Shown here in pieces: positions 3,815 through 32,152 of a stretch of DNA of 64,000 bases. A model generated the notes under the pieces. It saw only the letters and a list, made by a program, of their open reading frames with translations, was not told the origin of the DNA and ran no database searches. The position numbers were made by a program, and so were the translations under genes. The DNA is from a virus: IMG/VR virus record IMGVR_UViG_3300036893_000049, positions 1-64,000 of that record, one strand, 5' to 3'. Each line of letters begins with the position of its first letter. Position 1 is the first letter of the stretch.

Positions 3815-4407
3815 CCAAAGGCACCACAATCCATGCCAGGCTCAAGACACTTATCGAGGTCCCCACAACCCGGCATCTTTGGACACCACAGGATACAACT
3901 ACCTTCATCCCGCCGGTAATGAGCAAAATATACGGCGACGGGCGCGCACTTTTTAGGCTGACAACCATAAACGATCGCCCAGCCTATTGGGTGATTCGCG
4001 GTGACAGCGGCTGGCAATGTGGAGACGTGCATGCCCCTGATAATGCCCCGGATTTCGTTGATTTCCTCGACGATATTTTAACTTGCCTCGAAGATGAATT
4101 TGGGCGCGCCCTGTGCGGATATAATGGATCAAGCCTCTATACGCCGCCATCTGAACGGGATTGCACATGCGAAGAATGTTCCGATCCGGATAACGTGGCC
4201 CAATGGCCGAATGTTGATTCCTCAGAGGGTTGTTTGTGGGATAGAATAGACTGGCCAGCCGAATTCGGCACCATCGACCATCCTTGGACATGGCAGAGCA
4301 ATCTATTGGCACTGGAGGAAGAGTTGGCCTTTACCCCCGGGCACCCTCGTATCACCAATTTTTGGTTGCGGGCGGAGATTGAGCGCGCCGCAAGGATGCC
4401 GACATGA
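3811..4407 (+). CDS. Hypothetical protein with CxC..C motif
   Basis: A 198-residue protein coupled to the AAA+ gene by an ATGA overlap at 3811. It has a Trp-containing N-terminal half (PAYWVIRGDSGWQCGD) and a Cys cluster CTCEEC at about residue 117 that could bind a metal. The constant pairing with the ATPase suggests a partner or adaptor, which is inference from context only. No family recognised. Confidence 0.65.
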   Translation: MTKGTTIHARLKTLIEVPTTRHLWTPQDTTTFIPPVMSKIYGDGRALFRLTTINDRPAYWVIRGDSGWQCGDVHAPDNAPDFVDFLDDILTCLEDEFGRALCGYNGSSLYTPPSERDCTCEECSDPDNVAQWPNVDSSEGCLWDRIDWPAEFGTIDHPWTWQSNLLALEEELAFTPGHPRITNFWLRAEIERAARMPT

Positions 4408-23913: not shown

Positions 23914-24093
23914 TCAGGCCGCCGCTTTCTGATAAACCCGGTCCCATCCATTGGTCTGGGTTGGCGTCTCTACGCCAACGCACCGCGTGGCGAAGGACCA
24001 CACCATATCCATCAGCGCCGCCTTGCTCATGCTTTCGATTTCCGGCTGGCAGGTAGTCGGGATCAAAACGGGTCTTTGATTTTTCAGGTTCAT
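23914..24093 (-). CDS. Hypothetical protein, 59 aa
   Basis: ATG 24093 overlaps the stop of the upstream gene (ATGA) and follows AGGAGGC. The protein MNLKNQRPVLIPTTCQPEIE then ALMDMVWSFATRCVGVETP is helical with two Cys. Function unknown. Confidence 0.55.
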   Translation of the reverse strand: MNLKNQRPVLIPTTCQPEIESMSKAALMDMVWSFATRCVGVETPTQTNGWDRVYQKAAA

Positions 24094-24329
24094 CGTAAGG
24101 GCCTCCTGTAGTGGATTGCCTCATGCTCATCAGGAAGATCATCACCGGGTCTCTGGCAGCCCCAATATCCGTCGAGAAGCTGCACCCACTCGATAGGGCC
24201 ATCCTTGGCCATCGCGTCCCAGAATGACCGTGCTGCTTCACAGTTCGCGGGAGGACGGGAATGATATCGTTTTCCAGTCCCCATGCGGAACACTGCTGAA
24301 AGGTTCCAACCGGCTGGCAGCCCGCTCAC
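24090..24329 (-). CDS. Hypothetical protein, 79 aa
   Basis: Start set at GTG 24329, which overlaps the upstream stop (GTGA); a more upstream ATG would overlap that gene by 67 bases. Contains CEAARSFWDAMAKDGPIEWV and LLDGYWGCQRPGDDLPDE. No family recognised. Confidence 0.55.
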   Translation of the reverse strand: MSGLPAGWNLSAVFRMGTGKRYHSRPPANCEAARSFWDAMAKDGPIEWVQLLDGYWGCQRPGDDLPDEHEAIHYRRPLR

Positions 24330-24523
24330 GCTGGTTGCCAAACTCTCGGCCCCTTGGAATGGCCCAGATGCACGGTCATGGCTCGCACGCACCCGCCTCT
24401 CTTGTTCAGTATCCGCCGCGCGCCAAGTTCAGTCTTCGCGTATCCGAGCACGTAGCGGTCACCTTCCCCCTTGCTGTATGCGGGGTGCGTGACGGGCAAT
24501 GCGGTTGTTTCGACCTGTTTCAT
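24326..24523 (-). CDS. Hypothetical protein, 65 aa
   Basis: ATG 24523 lies four bases after the upstream stop. The sequence (MKQVETTALPVTHPAYSKGE, RYVLGYAKTELGARRILN) looks like a small alpha/beta fold ending in a basic tail. Function unknown. Confidence 0.58.
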   Translation of the reverse strand: MKQVETTALPVTHPAYSKGEGDRYVLGYAKTELGARRILNKRGGCVRAMTVHLGHSKGPRVWQPA

Positions 24524-24526
24524 GGC

Positions 24527-24847
24527 TCAGCCCTCCACTTTGGCAATGATGCGGTCGGCATCGACCAGACACAGATCAGCCCGGCTTTCCGACCATCCGA
24601 GGTCAATGAGCGCCTTCCGGTAGCGGGTGCGCATCTTACGCAGTTCCATCAGCATGTCGGGAGCCGCTGCAATCAGCCGCCCGTCCGCGTCCGCTTTCGG
24701 CTGGTCTGTGTTCTCGAAATTGACGGTGGCCACCAGGGCTTGGATGTCCTCCCCGCTGCGGTCGTCCATCTGAACGGCACCGCTTTCACGGTCATAGAAC
24801 CAGGGGCCTGTGGTGTGGGTCATGCTGTTGTGGTAGAACGGGTCCAT
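24527..24847 (-). CDS. Paralogue of the HTPGPW / LIAAAPDLL family, 106 aa
   Basis: ATG 24847 follows AGGAGAGACGAAG. MTHTTGPWFYDRESGAV and ADGRLIAAAPDMLMELRKM match the family signatures also seen at 22551-22835, though the two are diverged. Both occur within 2 kb in the same array, which points to an old duplication. Function of the family is unknown. Confidence 0.68.
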   Translation of the reverse strand: MDPFYHNSMTHTTGPWFYDRESGAVQMDDRSGEDIQALVATVNFENTDQPKADADGRLIAAAPDMLMELRKMRTRYRKALIDLGWSESRADLCLVDADRIIAKVEG

Positions 24848-24904
24848 CTTCGTCTCTCCTGTTTGGGATGGCGGGGAAGCCGGACGGGGCCGGAGCCCCG
24901 TTGT

Positions 24905-25111
24905 CTATGCTGACGCGAAGCCGACCATTTCGCCGCGCCAGTAGTTGGCTGTCGCCGCGAAAAATGCCGCGTTATCCCGCGCCTGTTTCGCGTGTCCGGG
25001 TTGTCCTTCTTCGATTGCCAGGACGGCGCGGCCCTCGGCATGGGCTGCCCAGAGATCGTATTGAGCGATCCATGCCGGGACGCGATCAAGGTTGATTTCG
25101 TTGAGTGTCAT
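24905..25111 (-). CDS. First gene of the minus-strand block, 68 aa
   Basis: ATG 25111 follows AGGAGGATGAG. It is helical (WIAQYDLWAAHAEGRAVLAI, QARDNAAFFAATANYWRGE) with many aromatic residues. It lies nearest to the minus promoter at 25279-25252, so it would be made first and most strongly. Function unknown; position makes it a good candidate for an early host-takeover protein. Confidence 0.58.
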   Translation of the reverse strand: MTLNEINLDRVPAWIAQYDLWAAHAEGRAVLAIEEGQPGHAKQARDNAAFFAATANYWRGEMVGFASA

Positions 25112-25251
25112 CTCATCCTCCTATCCAAAACCCCAGGACGATCCGGGGGCTTGAGAGAGTAGGCTGTCCGGGAGGTCCCGATCTTGAAGCAGGCGTTAAT
25201 CCTGCGAACGATCCGGGAGGCCCGATCGCCTGTCGTCCGGCGATAGGGGGA

Positions 25252-25279
25252 ATGTAGCGAAAGCGTATTGCGCCGTCAA
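25252..25279 (-). promoter_or_regulatory. Promoter of the minus-strand accessory block
   Basis: On the minus strand TTGACG (25279-25274), 16 bases, then TACATT (25257-25252). ATTGCGC copies lie over the -35 and the spacer. Transcription would enter the 68-aa gene at 25111 after a leader of about 130 bases that contains GGGAGG/ATCCGG inverted pieces (25140-25250). Confidence 0.5.
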
Positions 25280-25321
25280 TTGCGCTTTTCGCATACCTGT
25301 ATTGCGCTAGGCGTATTGCGC
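25267..25321 (+). promoter_or_regulatory. Four ATTGCGC operator repeats over divergent promoters
   Basis: ATTGCGC occurs at 25267, 25279, 25301 and 25315, all in the same orientation, three of them as GTATTGCGC. Copies 1-2 cover the minus promoter and copy 4 is the plus -35. Direct operator repeats are typical for ribbon-helix-helix repressors; the RHH gene at 25351 is the natural candidate. Confidence 0.65.
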
Positions 25322-25344
25322 TACCGCGTCCGAATCGGTATGGT
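25316..25344 (+). promoter_or_regulatory. Promoter of the RHH-tnpB operon
   Basis: TTGCGC (25316-25321), 17 bases, TATGGT (25339-25344), followed 6 bases later by the ATG at 25351. The -35 is part of the last ATTGCGC repeat. The transcript would have almost no leader, so the RHH mRNA may be leaderless. Confidence 0.5.
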
Positions 25345-25350
25345 CCGCCC

Positions 25351-25596
25351 ATGAGCAACGCCCAGATCACCCGAAACACACGCAACCTCACGATGCGCCT
25401 CCCGCTCGACCTCTATAATAAGGCGCGGGAGAAGGCGTCTGGGGGTAGCCTGAAGCCGGTCATCGAGGCTGGACTCCGTGAGGCGTGGGATATGCCGGTG
25501 GTAATATCTGGTGAGGGGGCTGACACGTCGGTGAGCGAACCTACTGAGGAAATCGAGGTCACGTCCGAGATGATCGAGGCGCGGAAGGTGGGATGA
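25351..25596 (+). CDS. Ribbon-helix-helix protein coupled to tnpB
   Basis: An 81-residue protein. RNLTMRLPLDLYNKAREKAS (about 11-30) and SLKPVIEAGLREAW (32-45) give the strand-helix-helix of a CopG/Arc-like DNA-binding dimer; the rest is an acidic tail. Its stop overlaps the tnpB start (ATGA), so both are translated together. The four direct repeats just upstream are its likely operators. It could repress both divergent promoters and so hold down the nuclease and the accessory block; that is inferred. Confidence 0.75.
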   Translation: MSNAQITRNTRNLTMRLPLDLYNKAREKASGGSLKPVIEAGLREAWDMPVVISGEGADTSVSEPTEEIEVTSEMIEARKVG

Positions 25597-26819
25597 GGGT
25601 GGTCATGCAGGCCACGAAAGGACGGCTCTACGGCGGCGGACTCGGAACCGTCGCGCGGATCGGCGGCCAGTGCCGGGCCGTGTGGAACCTGTTCGTTGCG
25701 GAGAGCGCCGAACGCTATAAGGCCGAGGGCAAGTTCGTTTTCTATGCTGAAATGTCGGCTCGGCTGCCGAAGTTGTTGAAGGAAGACGCGCGCCTTGCCG
25801 GGTTGCCGCACCGCGCGGCACAGATGACCGTGCAGAAGCTGGATCGGGCGTTGCGCGACTGCGCCAAGAGCAAGGGGAAGGCGCGACGCGGCTTTCCGCG
25901 CTTCAAGAAATACGCTGACAGGTCCGACGCTTTTTCGTTCGTTGGCCGCGAGGTCCGCGTTGAACCGGGTCGCATCCGACTGCCGAAGGTCGGCTGGCTT
26001 CGCGTGCGCGGCATGACCTTGCCCGATGGCGCTGACATGAAGCAGGTCGCCGTGACGCAAGAGCCGAATGGCTGGCACGTCTCCATCCAGTTCGAAGCCG
26101 CGCCGAAGCTCTACGCCGTGCCGACGCTTCCTGCGGTCGGTATCGACGGCGGCTTGATCCATCTGGCGACACTGAGCGACGGCACCCTCATTCCGCATCC
26201 ACGGCTTGCCAGGAAGGCCGCGAAGCGGCTGCGCCGGTTGAACCGGGAACGCGATCGGCGGCGCAAGGGCAGCGTGAACCGCCGACGCACCGTGGCCAAA
26301 CTCGGGCGCGCACATCGCGCGCTGGGCAACGCCCGCAAGGATGCGATGCACAAGGCCACCCGGAAACTGGTGGACACATACGGCGGCTTCGCCGTCGAGG
26401 ATTTGAGCCTGCGAGGCATGATGCGGACCCGGATGGCGGGTTCGCTGGCCGATGCTGGGCTGGGAGAGTTCGTCAGGACGCTCCACTACAAGGCCGATTG
26501 GGCGGGGCGAACGTGGCACGTTCACGGGCGCTTCGAACGCAGCACGGGCGTCTGTCCGGACTGCGGCCAAGTCGGCGGCAAGCTTGCCCTGTCCGTCAGG
26601 AGTTGGGTTTGCGATAGCTGCGGCGCGGTTCACGATCGCGACGTTGCCGCCGCCAGGGTGATCCTGGCTGGCGCGGTACTGCCAGTGGGGCAGGAACCGT
26701 CGGCTGCGATGCCGAGAAAGCGAGGCGCTGCCGCTCGTGGCGGGGATCGGGCATCCGCTCGGTCTAGTCACGGCGGGCCACCTCCGAATGTTGCCGATGC
26801 TCTGCCGGAGGCTGCATGA
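25593..26819 (+). CDS. tnpB: TnpB RNA-guided endonuclease with intact RuvC site
   Basis: A 408-residue protein of full TnpB length. RuvC-I is AVGIDGGLIHLATLSDG (Asp 185), RuvC-II is GGFAVEDLSLRGM (Glu 269), and RuvC-III is HDRDVAAARVIL (348-356), so the D-E-D set is kept. A zinc finger has CPDC (321-324) and CDSC (340-343). TnpB cuts DNA next to a TAM using an omega RNA made from the 3' end of its own gene. No TnpA or serine recombinase is adjacent, and both ends are fused into the phage operon by ATGA overlaps, which suggests domestication. The gene looks more GC-rich than its neighbours, a sign of transfer. Confidence 0.92.
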   Translation: MRVVMQATKGRLYGGGLGTVARIGGQCRAVWNLFVAESAERYKAEGKFVFYAEMSARLPKLLKEDARLAGLPHRAAQMTVQKLDRALRDCAKSKGKARRGFPRFKKYADRSDAFSFVGREVRVEPGRIRLPKVGWLRVRGMTLPDGADMKQVAVTQEPNGWHVSIQFEAAPKLYAVPTLPAVGIDGGLIHLATLSDGTLIPHPRLARKAAKRLRRLNRERDRRRKGSVNRRRTVAKLGRAHRALGNARKDAMHKATRKLVDTYGGFAVEDLSLRGMMRTRMAGSLADAGLGEFVRTLHYKADWAGRTWHVHGRFERSTGVCPDCGQVGGKLALSVRSWVCDSCGAVHDRDVAAARVILAGAVLPVGQEPSAAMPRKRGAAARGGDRASARSSHGGPPPNVADALPEAA

Positions 26820-26901
26820 GCAAAAGCAATAACCCCGATCCCGATCTTGACAAAATCACGGAATCGCCCCGATTGTCCGTCCCGCGCAATGTGGAGCCGA
26901 C

Positions 26902-27078
26902 ATGCCGGACACCATTCCAATCGCCGCTGCGGACATCCCGCCGGATGATAAATACGATGCTATCCTGGCAATGCTGCACCGGATCGATGCCCGGGTTGAG
27001 GCGCAGGGACGGGAGATACGGACGCTGGTCGAGATGCTGCGGTCGCGGGCTACCCTTCCGCCGGTCGGGTATCGTTGA
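26902..27078 (+). CDS. Small coiled-coil protein, 58 aa
   Basis: ATG 26902 follows GTGGAG. MPDTIPIAAADIPPDDKYDA leads into a coiled helix (ILAMLHRIDARVEAQGREIR, TLVEMLRSR). Its TGA overlaps the next ATG. Such short helical proteins often precede small terminase genes. The 82 bases between tnpB and this gene could hold the end of an omega RNA. Confidence 0.6.
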   Translation: MPDTIPIAAADIPPDDKYDAILAMLHRIDARVEAQGREIRTLVEMLRSRATLPPVGYR

Positions 27079-27887
27079 TGGCCACAATCGCCGAAAGCGC
27101 CGTTACCAAACCCGCCCGAATCGCCGAAAGCGCCGCCACCAAACCCGCCCGTAAACGACAGCGCCGCTCAGCCGAGTGCCAGCGGGAGCAGGTTCGCCGA
27201 AACCGCGAACGCCGGGCCGCCCGTGCGGAGGCGGATCGAATCGCCGCGGCGGAGGCGGAGCAGCGCCGGGCCGATGACAGGGAACGCCGGGCCGAGGCCA
27301 TCGCTCCGGCATTTCTTCGCAACCCGGTGGTCGTCCCCAAGGGTCGCATGATTGTTGGCCCGCGAATCCAGATCAATGGCAACCATGCTGTTCGAGGTGT
27401 CGAATTTCCATTCGCCTCCCGCCGCGCGCGCCGGGCTATTTCCATGCTCCGGCAGGACTGGGCCGATGTGGGCGCCGGTCTCACCGCGGGCACGGCAAAC
27501 TATGTGGGAATCACCGGGGGCGGATCGGATGCGCCGATCTCAGGCAAGGACTCCGCCATGCTGGCCCAGATCGAAATGCGAGCCCGGCTTGACGGTGCGA
27601 TGACATACGTCGGGGCATTCGCCCCGTGTCTCGCCAGGATCGTGCTGGATTGCATCCCCGTCGCGACATGGGCGATAGAACAGGCCATCCCAATTACGCC
27701 CGACGCCGCCATGAAGCACGTCCTCGCGGCGTTCAACCGGCTCGCGGATTGGTATTGTCCCACGAAACTCGTCGAAATCGGAACCCGCACGTTCGTCATC
27801 GCGCCGCCGCGCGAAGCCTATGCGGTGCCAGGCCAGGACTATGCCGGTCCCGAATATGATGAGCGGGGACGGCAGATTGGGGCTTGA
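27078..27887 (+). CDS. Basic N-terminus protein with DUF6456-like end
   Basis: A 269-residue protein from ATG 27078 (TGATG overlap). The first 80 residues are Arg/Ala-rich, starting with IAESAVTKPAR repeated twice. The C-terminal half (AMLAQIEMRARLDGAMTYVG, then AMKHVLAAFNRLADWY) resembles the DUF6456 pattern, a small helical DNA-binding-type domain of alphaproteobacteria. It is just before the terminase genes, and its last codons contain the -35 of their promoter. Possibly a DNA-binding packaging or regulatory protein. Confidence 0.62.
   Translation: MATIAESAVTKPARIAESAATKPARKRQRRSAECQREQVRRNRERRAARAEADRIAAAEAEQRRADDRERRAEAIAPAFLRNPVVVPKGRMIVGPRIQINGNHAVRGVEFPFASRRARRAISMLRQDWADVGAGLTAGTANYVGITGGGSDAPISGKDSAMLAQIEMRARLDGAMTYVGAFAPCLARIVLDCIPVATWAIEQAIPITPDAAMKHVLAAFNRLADWYCPTKLVEIGTRTFVIAPPREAYAVPGQDYAGPEYDERGRQIGA
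27086..27151 (+). repeat. 33-bp tandem duplication
   Basis: Two units beginning AATCGCCGAAAGCGCCG start at 27086 and 27119, with two mismatches, giving the doubled IAESA[VA]TKPAR at the N terminus of the encoded protein. Confidence 0.85.
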
Positions 27888-27973: not shown

Positions 27974-28360
27974 ATGCCTGCTGGTGCCGCCCCCGGTGAG
28001 CGGCGGGGTGGTCGGCAAAAAGGTACAACCAACAAACTGACCAAGGCCCGCGATGAATCTGAGAAGGCCGCTCGCGCCGTTGCCTTTGGAAGTTTGACCG
28101 AAGATCAGATTCAAGCCCTGACGCCGAAGGATATCTTTCGTCTTGTGGCACACCATGCGGTGCGGACGATGGATATCCCTCTGATGCTCAAGGCCGCGTC
28201 TGAACTGGCCCCATACGTACATCCGCGCCTGACCGCGACCACGTTGGAAGCTAATGTCCGTAGCAGCCCGAGCGATTACACGGATGCCGAACTCCTGGCG
28301 CTCGCAAGTGCCGGAATGGGCGAAGAAGGAGATGGCGAGGCGATCAGCGGCCCGCACTAA
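27974..28360 (+). CDS. Terminase small subunit-like protein
   Basis: A 128-residue protein beginning PAGAAPGERRGGRQKGTTNK, the basic GGRQKGTPNK opening shared by many phage small-terminase-type proteins. A helical region follows (DIFRLVAHHAVRTMDIPLML). It immediately precedes and overlaps the large terminase gene by 29 bases. It would recognise the phage packaging site. No typical HTH is obvious, so the call rests on the N-terminal motif and position. Confidence 0.68.
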   Translation: MPAGAAPGERRGGRQKGTTNKLTKARDESEKAARAVAFGSLTEDQIQALTPKDIFRLVAHHAVRTMDIPLMLKAASELAPYVHPRLTATTLEANVRSSPSDYTDAELLALASAGMGEEGDGEAISGPH

Positions 28361-29759
28361 GCTGCTCGGATTTGTCCAGTATACGTATCCCACTTATATC
28401 CCAGCCGGACACCACGGACTGATCTGTGAAAAACTGGAGGCGGTCGAACGCGGTGAATGTAAGCGGCTTATGATTCTAATGCCGCCGCGCCATGGGAAAA
28501 GCCAGCTTGTCTCTCGACATTTCCCGGCATGGTATATCGGCCGGAATCCAACAAAGCAGATTATTAGTGCCTCCTACGCCTCGGACCTTGCATCTGGCTT
28601 TGGCCGCGATGTCCGCAATCTGGTTGCCAGCCAAGAGTTCGCCGCGATCTTTCCCGGCGTTCGTTTGGCTGATGACAGTGCGGCGAAAAATCTCTGGCAC
28701 ACCACACAGGGCGGTATCTATGTCGCGGCGGGGGTGGGCACGGGCATCACCGGCAAGGGAGCCGACATTTTGAACATTGACGATCCGGTAAAGGACCGGG
28801 CGGAGGCGGAAAGTCAGACTATCCGGGATGGTATCCTCGCGTGGTACACGTCAACTTCATACACGCGATTGATGCCCGGTGCCGCGGTAATCCTGACCAT
28901 GACTCGCTGGCATGAAGACGATCTCGGCGGCACGTTGTTGCAGATGGCCGGGGGTGACAAGTGGGACGTGCTGTCACTCCCCGCACTGGCATCAGCCAAC
29001 GACGACCCGCTTGGCCGAGCCGCGAATGAAGCTCTCTGGCCAGCGTGGTACGATGAGACCGCGCTTGCGAAGATCCGGGCGAACATAGGCGAGCGGGATT
29101 TCGGTGCGCTTTATCAACAAGACCCTCGACCGGCCGGGACATCCTTTTTCGATGTTCAATGTTGCCTCGTCGATGGCCAGCCGGTTGATGCGCCAAAAAA
29201 CTGCGAAAGTGTATTCGCTGTCATGGACACGGCGATTAAGACCGGCACGAAAAACGATGGGACCGGCATTCTGTATTGTGCTTTTTCTCCACATTTCGGC
29301 TACCAACTAACGATTCTGGATTGGGAAATTCAGCAGATCGAAGGTGCGATGTTGGAGACGTGGTTTCCTGTCATTTACGAAACCCTGGAAGGCTACGCCA
29401 AGGCTCAGCGGGCGCGAATGGGCGCGCTGGGAGTCTATATCGAGGACAAGGCGAGCGGAAGCATTCTTCTTCAGCAAGCCGCTCGGCGGGGTTGGCCAGC
29501 GAAAGCGATCGAAAGCGGGTTGACCGCGGTCGGTAAGGACGAACGAGCGATATCCGTCTCGGGATACGTTACCAGGGGCGATGTTAAAATATCACGTCAC
29601 GCCTATGAGAAGATCACGAATTACAAAGGCCGGAACGGCAACCATTTCCTGATGCAGGTGTTTCGATTCCAGGTCGGTGTGAAGGATCAGGCGGACGACC
29701 TGCTAGACTGCTTTACATATTCCGCGGCGCTGGCTTTGGGTAACTCAGACGGGTATTGA
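28332..29759 (+). CDS. terL: Terminase large subunit
   Basis: About 475 residues from ATG 28332 (GTG 28308 is an alternative). Walker A is MPPRHGKS near residue 50-57, Walker B is ADILNIDDP near 143-151, and TMTRWHEDDLGG is the motif III/coupling region. The C-terminal nuclease fold shows VFAVMDTAIKTGTKNDGTG (first acidic residue), IEDKASG and QADDLLDCFTYS. It drives DNA translocation into the prohead and cuts concatemers. Length and motif order are normal for a myovirus or siphovirus TerL. Confidence 0.93.
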   Translation: MARRSAARTKLLGFVQYTYPTYIPAGHHGLICEKLEAVERGECKRLMILMPPRHGKSQLVSRHFPAWYIGRNPTKQIISASYASDLASGFGRDVRNLVASQEFAAIFPGVRLADDSAAKNLWHTTQGGIYVAAGVGTGITGKGADILNIDDPVKDRAEAESQTIRDGILAWYTSTSYTRLMPGAAVILTMTRWHEDDLGGTLLQMAGGDKWDVLSLPALASANDDPLGRAANEALWPAWYDETALAKIRANIGERDFGALYQQDPRPAGTSFFDVQCCLVDGQPVDAPKNCESVFAVMDTAIKTGTKNDGTGILYCAFSPHFGYQLTILDWEIQQIEGAMLETWFPVIYETLEGYAKAQRARMGALGVYIEDKASGSILLQQAARRGWPAKAIESGLTAVGKDERAISVSGYVTRGDVKISRHAYEKITNYKGRNGNHFLMQVFRFQVGVKDQADDLLDCFTYSAALALGNSDGY

Positions 29760-30457: not shown

Positions 30458-30621
30458 TCGATCCTGTTGCCGCGGTCGTGACTGCCTTGGCGGAACGTGG
30501 CATCGCAATCGATCCGGCCATACTCGCGGACGCGATTCATGCCGCTGGGGCTCAATTCATCCCGCAGGCCGAAGCGCATGACACCGCGAAAGCATGGGAA
30601 CGCGGCATAAAAAATGGCTGA
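30454..30621 (+). CDS. Small hypothetical protein, 55 aa
   Basis: ATG 30454 overlaps the previous stop (ATGA), and its own end overlaps the portal start. MIDPVAAVVTALAERGIAID then HAAGAQFIPQAEAHDTAKAW is helical and acidic. Its fixed place before the portal suggests an assembly accessory, by context only. Confidence 0.58.
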   Translation: MIDPVAAVVTALAERGIAIDPAILADAIHAAGAQFIPQAEAHDTAKAWERGIKNG

Positions 30622-32152
30622 GATTACAATTACGGGGGTGAATCTAAGCACGACCCTTCAAAACCTGTTGATGGCCGATGATATCGTCCCCGGCGCGGAA
30701 CCGTCGTATCAACTTTGTCAAGAAATTTACGTTTCGCATCCGCTAGGAAAAAAATTGTGCGACACTCCAATCGCGCTGGCGCAGTCGCAACCTCGCGAAA
30801 TCGCGATCCCAGGTGCGCCGGAACGGGTCAAAGAACAATTCCTGAAACAATGGAAGTCGGATGGATGCGACGGCCATATCTTTAATGTCGGTTCGGCATC
30901 CCGCCGTCTCGGTGTTGCTGCGATTGGTATCCTGATACGGGGCGTTGAGCCAATGGCTCCCCTCGATCTCGAAAAGATCGCGAATGCCGAGATTTCATTT
31001 AATATGTGGGATGCCCTCAATCTGGCGGGATCGCAGGTTCTCGACCTCGATCCGAACTCGATGGACTTCCTCAAGCCGACCAAAGTATCGGCGGCCGGGA
31101 CGCCGTATCATCGCAGCCGTGCCATTGTGCTGATGCACGAAAAACCGCTGTATCTGAAATATAGCAATCCGGCTTATGGGTTCACGGGCCGTTCGGTTTA
31201 CCAGCGAGCCTTGTTTCCGCTGAAATCGTTTGTTCTGACGATGGTCACGGATGCGATGGTTGCCCGCAAGGCCGGGCTTTTGATCGCGGCGATGAAACAG
31301 GCCGGGTCCGTCATCAGTCAGGCGATGCAAAAACTGTTTAGTGTTAAGCGCGGGATGCTGGAAGACGGCGCTACGAACAATGTGCTTGGCATCGGGGCTG
31401 AAGACCGCATTGAGTCTCTGAACCTACAGAACGTCAACGGCGCGATGAGCGAGTCCCGTAAGAATATTCTCGATAACATCGCGACCGCCGCCGATATGCC
31501 AGCTATTATGCTGAACCAGGAGACTTTCGCGGAAGGGTTCGGCGAAGGCATCGAGGACGCCAAGTCGGTTGCCCGTTATGTCGGTGGCGTCCGCGCCGAA
31601 CTCGAACCAATCTATTCCTGGTTCGATACCATCATCATGCACCGGGCCTGGACGAAGGAATTCTTCAAGACGTTGCAGGCGGAAGAAGAAAATTCCCCTG
31701 ACGTGGAACCGGTTTATTCCGGTATGGAGTATCGCGAAGCATTTTATCAATGGAAGAACGCTTTCTCCGCGATCTGGCCGTCTCTGATCGAGGAGCCGGA
31801 ATCGGAGGCCGTCATGGTCGAGGATGTGAAAATCAAGGGTGTGATCGCCACTGTCCAGGTCTTCGATCCCTTGATGCCGGATCAACACAACAAGGCGGAA
31901 CTGATCGAGTGGGCGCAGGACAATCTGAATTCCAGCGAGACATTGTTCAGGACGCCTCTTAATATCAGCCTCGATCTGATCGCGGATTATGAACCGCCGG
32001 TGCCGATTGCCATACCCGGCGAAGACGAAGGGGAAGGCAAAGAACCGCCGGAACCAAGACCCTTCAGCCGCCAGGACGCGGATGCGCGTGTCGCGGGATG
32101 GCTGGCCGCGGTGCCGGTGTTGGGAAAGAAGAGAGGCCGTGCCGCCGCTTGA
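30614..32152 (+). CDS. Portal protein (DUF1073-like)
   Basis: A 512-residue protein. The N-terminal half has QEIYVSHPLGKKLCDTPIAL and AAIGILIRGVEP, and the middle helix has TDAMVARKAGLLIAAMKQAG. The segment SESRKNILDNIATAADMPAIMLN followed by FAEGFGEGIEDAKSVARYV matches the stem/wing region of DUF1073-type portals (the M--S----S---A-DIP---L-G---GG----GE-D---Y pattern). The C terminus is an acidic disordered tail. It forms the dodecameric vertex for DNA entry. The gene order terL-portal-morphogenesis supports the call. Confidence 0.85.
   Translation: MAEITITGVNLSTTLQNLLMADDIVPGAEPSYQLCQEIYVSHPLGKKLCDTPIALAQSQPREIAIPGAPERVKEQFLKQWKSDGCDGHIFNVGSASRRLGVAAIGILIRGVEPMAPLDLEKIANAEISFNMWDALNLAGSQVLDLDPNSMDFLKPTKVSAAGTPYHRSRAIVLMHEKPLYLKYSNPAYGFTGRSVYQRALFPLKSFVLTMVTDAMVARKAGLLIAAMKQAGSVISQAMQKLFSVKRGMLEDGATNNVLGIGAEDRIESLNLQNVNGAMSESRKNILDNIATAADMPAIMLNQETFAEGFGEGIEDAKSVARYVGGVRAELEPIYSWFDTIIMHRAWTKEFFKTLQAEEENSPDVEPVYSGMEYREAFYQWKNAFSAIWPSLIEEPESEAVMVEDVKIKGVIATVQVFDPLMPDQHNKAELIEWAQDNLNSSETLFRTPLNISLDLIADYEPPVPIAIPGEDEGEGKEPPEPRPFSRQDADARVAGWLAAVPVLGKKRGRAAA

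What the first reader, a model, noticed from the sequence alone, without database searches (positions are those of the whole stretch)
25252..26819. RHH-TnpB operon with four direct operator repeats and divergent promoters
An intact TnpB (D185, E269, D350 region and zinc finger kept) is translated in an ATGA-coupled operon with a ribbon-helix-helix gene and lies behind four ATTGCGC repeats that cover both divergent promoters. There is no TnpA and no clear element end, and TnpB is coupled to phage frames on both sides. This looks like a TnpB taken into phage regulation rather than a mobile element. Known TnpB-derived repressors lose the RuvC residues, so this one may still cut DNA, for example rival phage, plasmid or host genes.
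Basis: partly seen in the sequence, partly recalled or inferred. Interest (0 to 1): 0.72.

Follow-up and report, generated by a model that had tools for sequence, protein, structure and literature searches.

The report
Phage-trapped TnpB from a DDE transposon
A phage carries a still-intact RNA-guided DNA cutter (TnpB) that came in as cargo of an IS1595-type jumping gene, a kind of transposon not usually linked to TnpB, and then lost its transposase and left end while keeping the nuclease, its guide-RNA scaffold and the right end.

Summary
The genes and four ATTGCGC repeats are real, and TnpB keeps D185/E269/D350 and its zinc finger. Two parts of the reading fail. There is a clear element end: 26820-26837 is the right terminal inverted repeat of an IS1595-family (DDE) transposon. 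The ATGA overlap is not a new RHH-TnpB coupling: relatives have the same overlap between the IS1595 transposase stop and the tnpB start. Of nine distinct family loci, five carry tnpA+tnpB (two with 8-bp target duplications: L002, G798); four, including the window, lack tnpA. At all five sites with a left end the target is preceded by CGNNCA; six of six tnpB-less IS1595 copies lack it. The right repeat forms the 3' half-stem of the predicted omegaRNA, and fourfold sites in that part of tnpB are nearly frozen. So the guide should start at 26838, and CGNNCA behaves like a TAM at the empty site. Best explanation: a TnpB captured by a bacterial DDE transposon, stranded in a phage operon, still able to cut the uninserted allele. 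The ancestry is well supported. RNA, TAM and cleavage are inferred; phage exaptation is possible, not shown. My searches found no paper linking IS1595 and TnpB.

The parts
25593..26819 (+). tnpB, 408 aa, RuvC D185/E269/D350 and CxxC/CxxC zinc finger intact
   Evidence: body dN/dS 0.078 against L002
26712..26837 (+). predicted omegaRNA scaffold, overlapping the tnpB 3' end and the right inverted repeat
   Evidence: fourfold sites nearly frozen in alignment codons 381-407; consensus fold with 5 double-changed pairs of 35; no Rfam hit
26820..26837 (+). right terminal inverted repeat of an IS1595-family transposon, GCAAAAGCAATAACCCCG; its GCAATA pairs with TGTTGC upstream as the 3' stem of the predicted omegaRNA
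   Evidence: end fixed by the 8-bp target duplication in L002
26838..26857 (+). predicted guide (right flank), ATCCCGATCTTGACAAAATC
   Evidence: inferred from the element end; no CGNNCA-ATCCCGAT in the 85-kb record at up to 1 mismatch
25351..25596 (+). 81-aa ribbon-helix-helix-like phage gene upstream; its ATGA overlap occupies the position of the ancestral tnpA stop/tnpB start overlap; not part of the transposon
   Evidence: no relative in phages or viral contigs
25267..25321 (+). four ATTGCGC repeats in the divergent intergenic region, candidate operators of the RHH-like gene
25251..25279 (-). minus-strand promoter-like site under two of the repeats
26902..27078 (+). 58-aa ORF downstream of the element end, codirectional with tnpB

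Best explanation
The window TnpB is the surviving right part of an IS1595-family DDE transposon that carried tnpB as a passenger overlapping the transposase stop codon. Shown: in intact copies the element runs from a left repeat (GG...TATTG...) through tnpA and tnpB to a right repeat, is flanked by an 8-bp target duplication (L002, G798), and the target is preceded by CGNNCA. In the window the left end and tnpA are gone; tnpB, the predicted omegaRNA and the right repeat remain. Inferred: TnpB processes its mRNA into an omegaRNA that ends at the right repeat, so the guide is the flanking DNA from 26838. The guide then matches the uninserted allele, where CGNNCA would act as TAM. In the transposon this would cut the donor or sister site after excision, so that the element is copied back, as in IS200/605. 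In the phage it would act as an RNA-guided homing nuclease: it cuts co-infecting phages that lack the insertion and is spread by recombination, without a transposase. Expression is probably from the upstream phage (RHH) transcript.
For: DNA identity to relatives spans 25600-26839 and stops. In L002, L003, L005 and L006=L008 the upstream gene is IS1595 tnpA (NCBIfam transpos_IS1595 2.1e-53 and 1.1e-51 for L002 and L005; tblastn for the others); likewise G798. L002 has TSD ATCATCTG; L003 holds the same 2200 bases at another site. G798 has TSD TTAAAAGT, and 11 of 11 sister loci examined are empty at that point (30 of 249 genomes matched, G798 itself among them). CGNNCA before the target: 5 of 5; four invariant columns within six never reached in 200,000 random draws; tnpB-less IS1595 with clear ends: 0 of 6. 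Fourfold changes in the omegaRNA part: 1/17, 1/17, 1/15, 1/15 against 69/200, 77/189, 77/186, 68/133 in the body (window against L002, L004, L005, G798). The window's own motif-plus-target is absent from its record.
Against: No small-RNA, TAM or cleavage data. Only five sites support CGNNCA; L005 has no matching target duplication, and the right ends of L006=L008 and L003 are cut off by contig ends. The tail is not frozen against L007 (5/12 against 64/141). The GCAATA stem is weak in L007 and not kept in G798. Folding energy of the scaffold is unremarkable (z -1.19). No phage lacking the window insertion was found, so homing in phages is untested. When tnpA was lost relative to the measured purifying selection is unknown.
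Confidence: 0.66

Rival explanations
1. Decaying remnant: the transposon inserted in the phage, a deletion removed the left end and tnpA, and TnpB has no function now.
For: Left end and tnpA are missing (no close tnpA in the record); the deletion edge differs in each tnpA-less copy (0, about 21, about 27 and about 80-90 nt of tnpA tail, partly by eye).
Against: The ORF, the catalytic residues and the omegaRNA part are intact; tnpA-less copies recur (4 of 9 loci), keep the right end, lie in line with neighbouring ORFs (by eye), and three of the four keep the family tnpB open (in L106 the open tnpB is an IS607-like replacement).
Confidence: 0.22
2. Exapted weapon or regulator: TnpB was taken into the RHH operon and acts on rival phage, plasmid or host genes under RHH control.
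For: Position directly behind an RHH-like gene with clustered repeats in its promoter region; intact RuvC.
Against: The ATGA overlap is ancestral to tnpA-tnpB; other tnpA-less copies have other ORFs upstream; the 18-nt guide gave 2 unrelated matches in viral contigs, neither with CGNNCA.
Confidence: 0.1
3. TldR-like RNA-guided repressor, for instance of the divergent promoter region, where 12 bases of the guide recur at 25176-25187.
For: 12-base match TCCCGATCTTGA upstream of the RHH gene.
Confidence: 0.02

Closest known systems
IS200/IS605 and IS607 TnpB elements
   Same: TnpB with an omegaRNA from the tnpB 3' end and a guide from DNA beyond the right end; target next to a TAM (PMC10711439, passages read)
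   Different: Transposase here is an IS1595 DDE enzyme with inverted repeats and 8-bp duplications, not Y1 or serine recombinase; the window copy has lost it
IS1595-family transposons with passenger genes
   Same: tnpA type, inverted repeats, 8-bp duplication, passenger overlapping the tnpA stop (tnpB-less sisters L124, L128 carry other passengers in that place)
   Different: Passenger is an RNA-guided nuclease and insertions follow CGNNCA
Fanzor nucleases captured by eukaryotic DDE transposons (hAT, Mariner)
   Same: RNA-guided nuclease carried by a DDE transposon with target duplications (PMC10711439, passages read)
   Different: Bacterial, TnpB not Fanzor; no descent implied
TldR, phage-borne TnpB-derived RNA-guided repressors (PMC13418256, start of abstract in search listing)
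   Same: TnpB-derived gene resident in a phage without transposase
   Different: RuvC residues intact here; no promoter target found
TnpB gene drive on plasmids (PMC11870625, abstract read)
   Same: Proposed logic: cut copies lacking the insertion
   Different: Shown for IS200/605 on plasmids, not for DDE elements or phages

Membership tests
TnpB RNA-guided nuclease | RuvC D-E-D triad and zinc finger in an OrfB_IS605/TNB protein | tested here: met
TnpB RNA-guided nuclease | omegaRNA from the 3' end of tnpB and beyond | tested here: inconclusive
   frozen fourfold sites and conserved fold; no RNA data; no Rfam hit
TnpB RNA-guided nuclease | TAM-dependent cleavage | not testable with these tools
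   CGNNCA in 5 of 5 left flanks is indirect
IS200/IS605 or IS607 element | Y1 transposase or serine recombinase beside tnpB | tested here: not met
   RHH-like gene in the window, IS1595 tnpA in the relatives that have a transposase; only the chimeric L106 has an IS607-like recombinase tail (by eye)
IS1595-family transposon (the window copy) | IS1595 DDE transposase | tested here: not met
   absent beside tnpB; the one IS1595 domain in the record (74075-74509) is 27% identical to L002 tnpA
IS1595-family transposon (the window copy) | paired terminal inverted repeats | tested here: not met
   right repeat exact at 26820-26832, no left partner in 24086-26819 at up to 3 mismatches; one exact core in 85 kb
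IS1595-family transposon (relatives L002, G798) | tnpA, both ends and 8-bp duplication | tested here: met
TldR | loss of RuvC catalytic residues | tested here: not met
ribbon-helix-helix regulator (25351-25596) | strand-helix-helix fold and operator binding | tested here: inconclusive
   binding not tested

The most novel reading that the evidence does not exclude
A bacterial DDE transposon family has merged its right inverted repeat with the 3' end of a TnpB omegaRNA and is kept (or placed) only where a TAM precedes the target, so an RNA-guided nuclease polices or steers a DDE transposon; in phages the nuclease part repeatedly sheds the transposase and lives on as a transposase-free RNA-guided homing endonuclease.
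Probability: 0.42. Interest if true: 0.82.

Novelty: new variant of a known kind. Interest (0 to 1): 0.62.

Why it matters
TnpB is described with IS200/605 and IS607. In eukaryotes its Fanzor relatives were captured by DDE transposons (PMC10711439). A bacterial DDE case with defined ends, target duplications, an empty site and a TAM-like flank makes testable how an RNA-guided nuclease adapts to a new transposase, and whether phages keep transposase-free TnpBs as homing nucleases.

Tried and rejected
Guide target search: the 18-mer from 26838 gave two unrelated viral contigs without CGNNCA. The 12-base repeat at 25176 is within chance (14% of random 20-mers). Self-target with motif in the record: none.

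Phage empty site: terminase relatives (80 kept of 598) are too diverged upstream (the script compared 20 of the 80 loci, and its protein rows were printed for six). RHH, the 27078-27887 protein and the downstream L106 gene gave no other phage.

More members: 3 of 395 genomes of the order (G001 and two of 33-41% identity), 1 of 385 of the class (only G001), 2 of 397 of the family (G001 and G798). Phages and plasmids: no match at 60% identity or more (324 and 3304 records). Viral contigs: 6 loci, 7 with the alignment; genome contigs: 2, one of them L008.

ATTGCGC as a degenerate left end: rejected; it shares only ATTGC with the repeat, and nothing in 24086-26819 fits the repeat within 3 mismatches.

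Trans-mobilisation by the second IS1595 transposase of the record (74075): unlikely, 27% identity and no ends found around it.

tnpB-less control set: ends were sought around 27 IS1595 loci and again around 21 of them with a longer reach. Six were taken as clear (8 of 8 duplication with a good inverted repeat, chosen by eye: L114, L124, L128, L129, L131, L135). L127 also has an 8 of 8 duplication with 10 of 14 repeat positions in AT-rich DNA, and L133 an 8 of 8 with 8 of 14; I dropped both as doubtful. L127's flank (tcttggttga) and L133's (gccgcatggt) do not have the motif either.

Papers: searches list none that joins IS1595 and TnpB by title or abstract start; the five hits and the five were not opened. 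One outline with abstract and passages of two papers were read.

Full report
What is there. The window is bases 1-64000 of an 85,259-base IMG/VR virus record. TnpB runs 25593-26819 and overlaps an 81-aa ORF (25351-25596) by ATGA. Downstream lie phage packaging genes: a terminase at 28254-29759 (Pfam 4.8e-14) and a portal at 30614-32152 (8.6e-13). TnpB is a full RNA-guided nuclease by family models and alignment. Four ATTGCGC words lie in 25267-25321. The RHH call is plausible but weak.

Element ends. Close relatives share DNA with the window only from 25600 to about 26839, so this is a module. Upstream of tnpB in L002, L003, L005 and L006=L008 lies an IS1595-family transposase whose stop codon overlaps or abuts the tnpB start (in L006=L008 the junction holds an undetermined base). 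L002 is complete: left end GGGAATTATTGCTTTTAC at 2066, right end ..GCAAAAGCAATAACCCCG at 4264, duplication ATCATCTG on both sides; L003 has the same 2200 bases in other surroundings. G798, found in a family search, has tnpA and a 66%-identical tnpB between ORFs that I read as cysN and cysD (by eye), ends at 4070 and 6271 of the reversed L146, duplication TTAAAAGT. 30 of 249 family genomes, G798 included, matched the joined flanks; all 11 sister loci examined are uninterrupted at that point.

The window copy. Its right end is exact (26820-26837). No left repeat is found between 24086 and 26819 with up to three mismatches, and only one repeat core exists in 85 kb. Three further copies lack tnpA: L004 (tail of about 26 codons left), L007 (about 21 nt, by eye) and L106 (about 27 nt, by eye). 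L106 also carries an IS607-like recombinase tail and tnpB recombined into the family tnpB, with the right end kept. So 4 of 9 distinct loci (window, L002, L003, L004, L005, L006=L008, L007, L106, G798) have no tnpA, with different break points; these look like independent losses. The ATGA or GTGA overlap occurs with tnpA in G798 (ATGA) and L005 (GTGA), as TGATG in L002, and at the same place in the tnpA-less L004, L007, L106 and window. The RHH-TnpB overlap is therefore inherited.

Guide RNA. In the tnpB codons that precede the right end, fourfold sites hardly change between window and L002, L004, L005, G798 (1/17, 1/17, 1/15, 1/15) while the body changes freely (69/200, 77/189, 77/186, 68/133; Fisher p 0.01 to 0.0007); against L007 there is no difference (5/12, 64/141). 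The consensus fold of five sequences has 35 pairs, 92.5% of cells paired, five pairs with double changes (1 of 500 shuffles as high). The last stem joins TGTTGC to GCAATA of the right repeat; it is kept in window, L002, L004, L106 and one of two L005 folds, weak in L007, and not kept in G798. Single-sequence energies are mostly unremarkable (L004 alone stands out, z -4.15). The element boundary set by the duplications thus coincides with the end of the conserved RNA, as for IS200/605, whose scaffold ends at the transposon boundary (PMC10711439, passages).

TAM-like flank. Taking the left end by the repeat alone, the bases before the 8-bp target are CGTTCA (L002), CGTTCA (L003), CGGGCA (G798), CGCACA (L005), CGATCA (L006=L008): four invariant columns, C at -6, G at -5, C at -2, A at -1. 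At least four invariant columns in 20 arose in a fraction 2e-5 of 200,000 random draws, and four in the last six never. The right side is not a mirror image (L002, G798). Six tnpB-less IS1595 copies with clear repeats and duplications (L114, L124, L128, L129, L131, L135) have no such flank, though L129, L131 and L135 belong to another subgroup by their ends, and the set was chosen by eye. Caveat: only L002 and G798 have both duplications; L005 has a mismatched right side, and the others end at contig edges. An asymmetric motif exactly where a TAM must lie is what TnpB selection predicts; a transposase preference is not excluded.

Selection. Window against L002: dN/dS 0.078 in the body. This spans time inside the transposon, so it does not date or prove selection after tnpA loss.

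Function. Most likely the nuclease still recognises the uninserted allele and would act as a homing nuclease between phages, by the logic shown for IS200/605 on plasmids (PMC11870625, abstract). No phage empty site was found, so this step is inference. Control by the RHH-like protein is possible because tnpB is codirectional and overlapping, but is untested.

Novelty. Searches for IS1595 with TnpB or RNA-guided and others show no paper on this pairing by title or abstract start; most subscription journals are not held. Capture by DDE transposons is known for eukaryotic Fanzors (PMC10711439). I rate it a new variant of a known kind.

Noticed in passing
G000:C1:74075-74509 (outside the window; L161): A second, distant IS1595-family transposase (27% identical to L002 tnpA) sits among ORFs of the same record, with no recognisable ends or duplication around it.
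   Followed up: partly
L106:3974-5470: Chimera: an IS607-like serine recombinase tail and tnpB are recombined into the N-terminal part of an IS1595-type tnpB, while the right end TAAAAGCAATAATCACG is kept.
   Followed up: partly
L124, L128, L114: tnpB-less IS1595 elements with clear repeats and 8-bp duplications carry other passenger ORFs overlapping or following the tnpA stop (319 and 320 aa in L124 and L128).
   Followed up: partly
L005 tnpB: The second cysteine of the first zinc-finger pair is lost (CPAT instead of CPDC), although RuvC residues are kept.
   Followed up: no
window:25138-25227: Short intergenic repeats around CGATCCGGGAGG and CCCGATC between the minus-strand genes and the RHH-like gene.
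   Followed up: no
window:25316-25351: The plus-strand promoter-like site before the RHH-like gene would place the transcript start at about the ATG, suggesting a leaderless message or another start.
   Followed up: no
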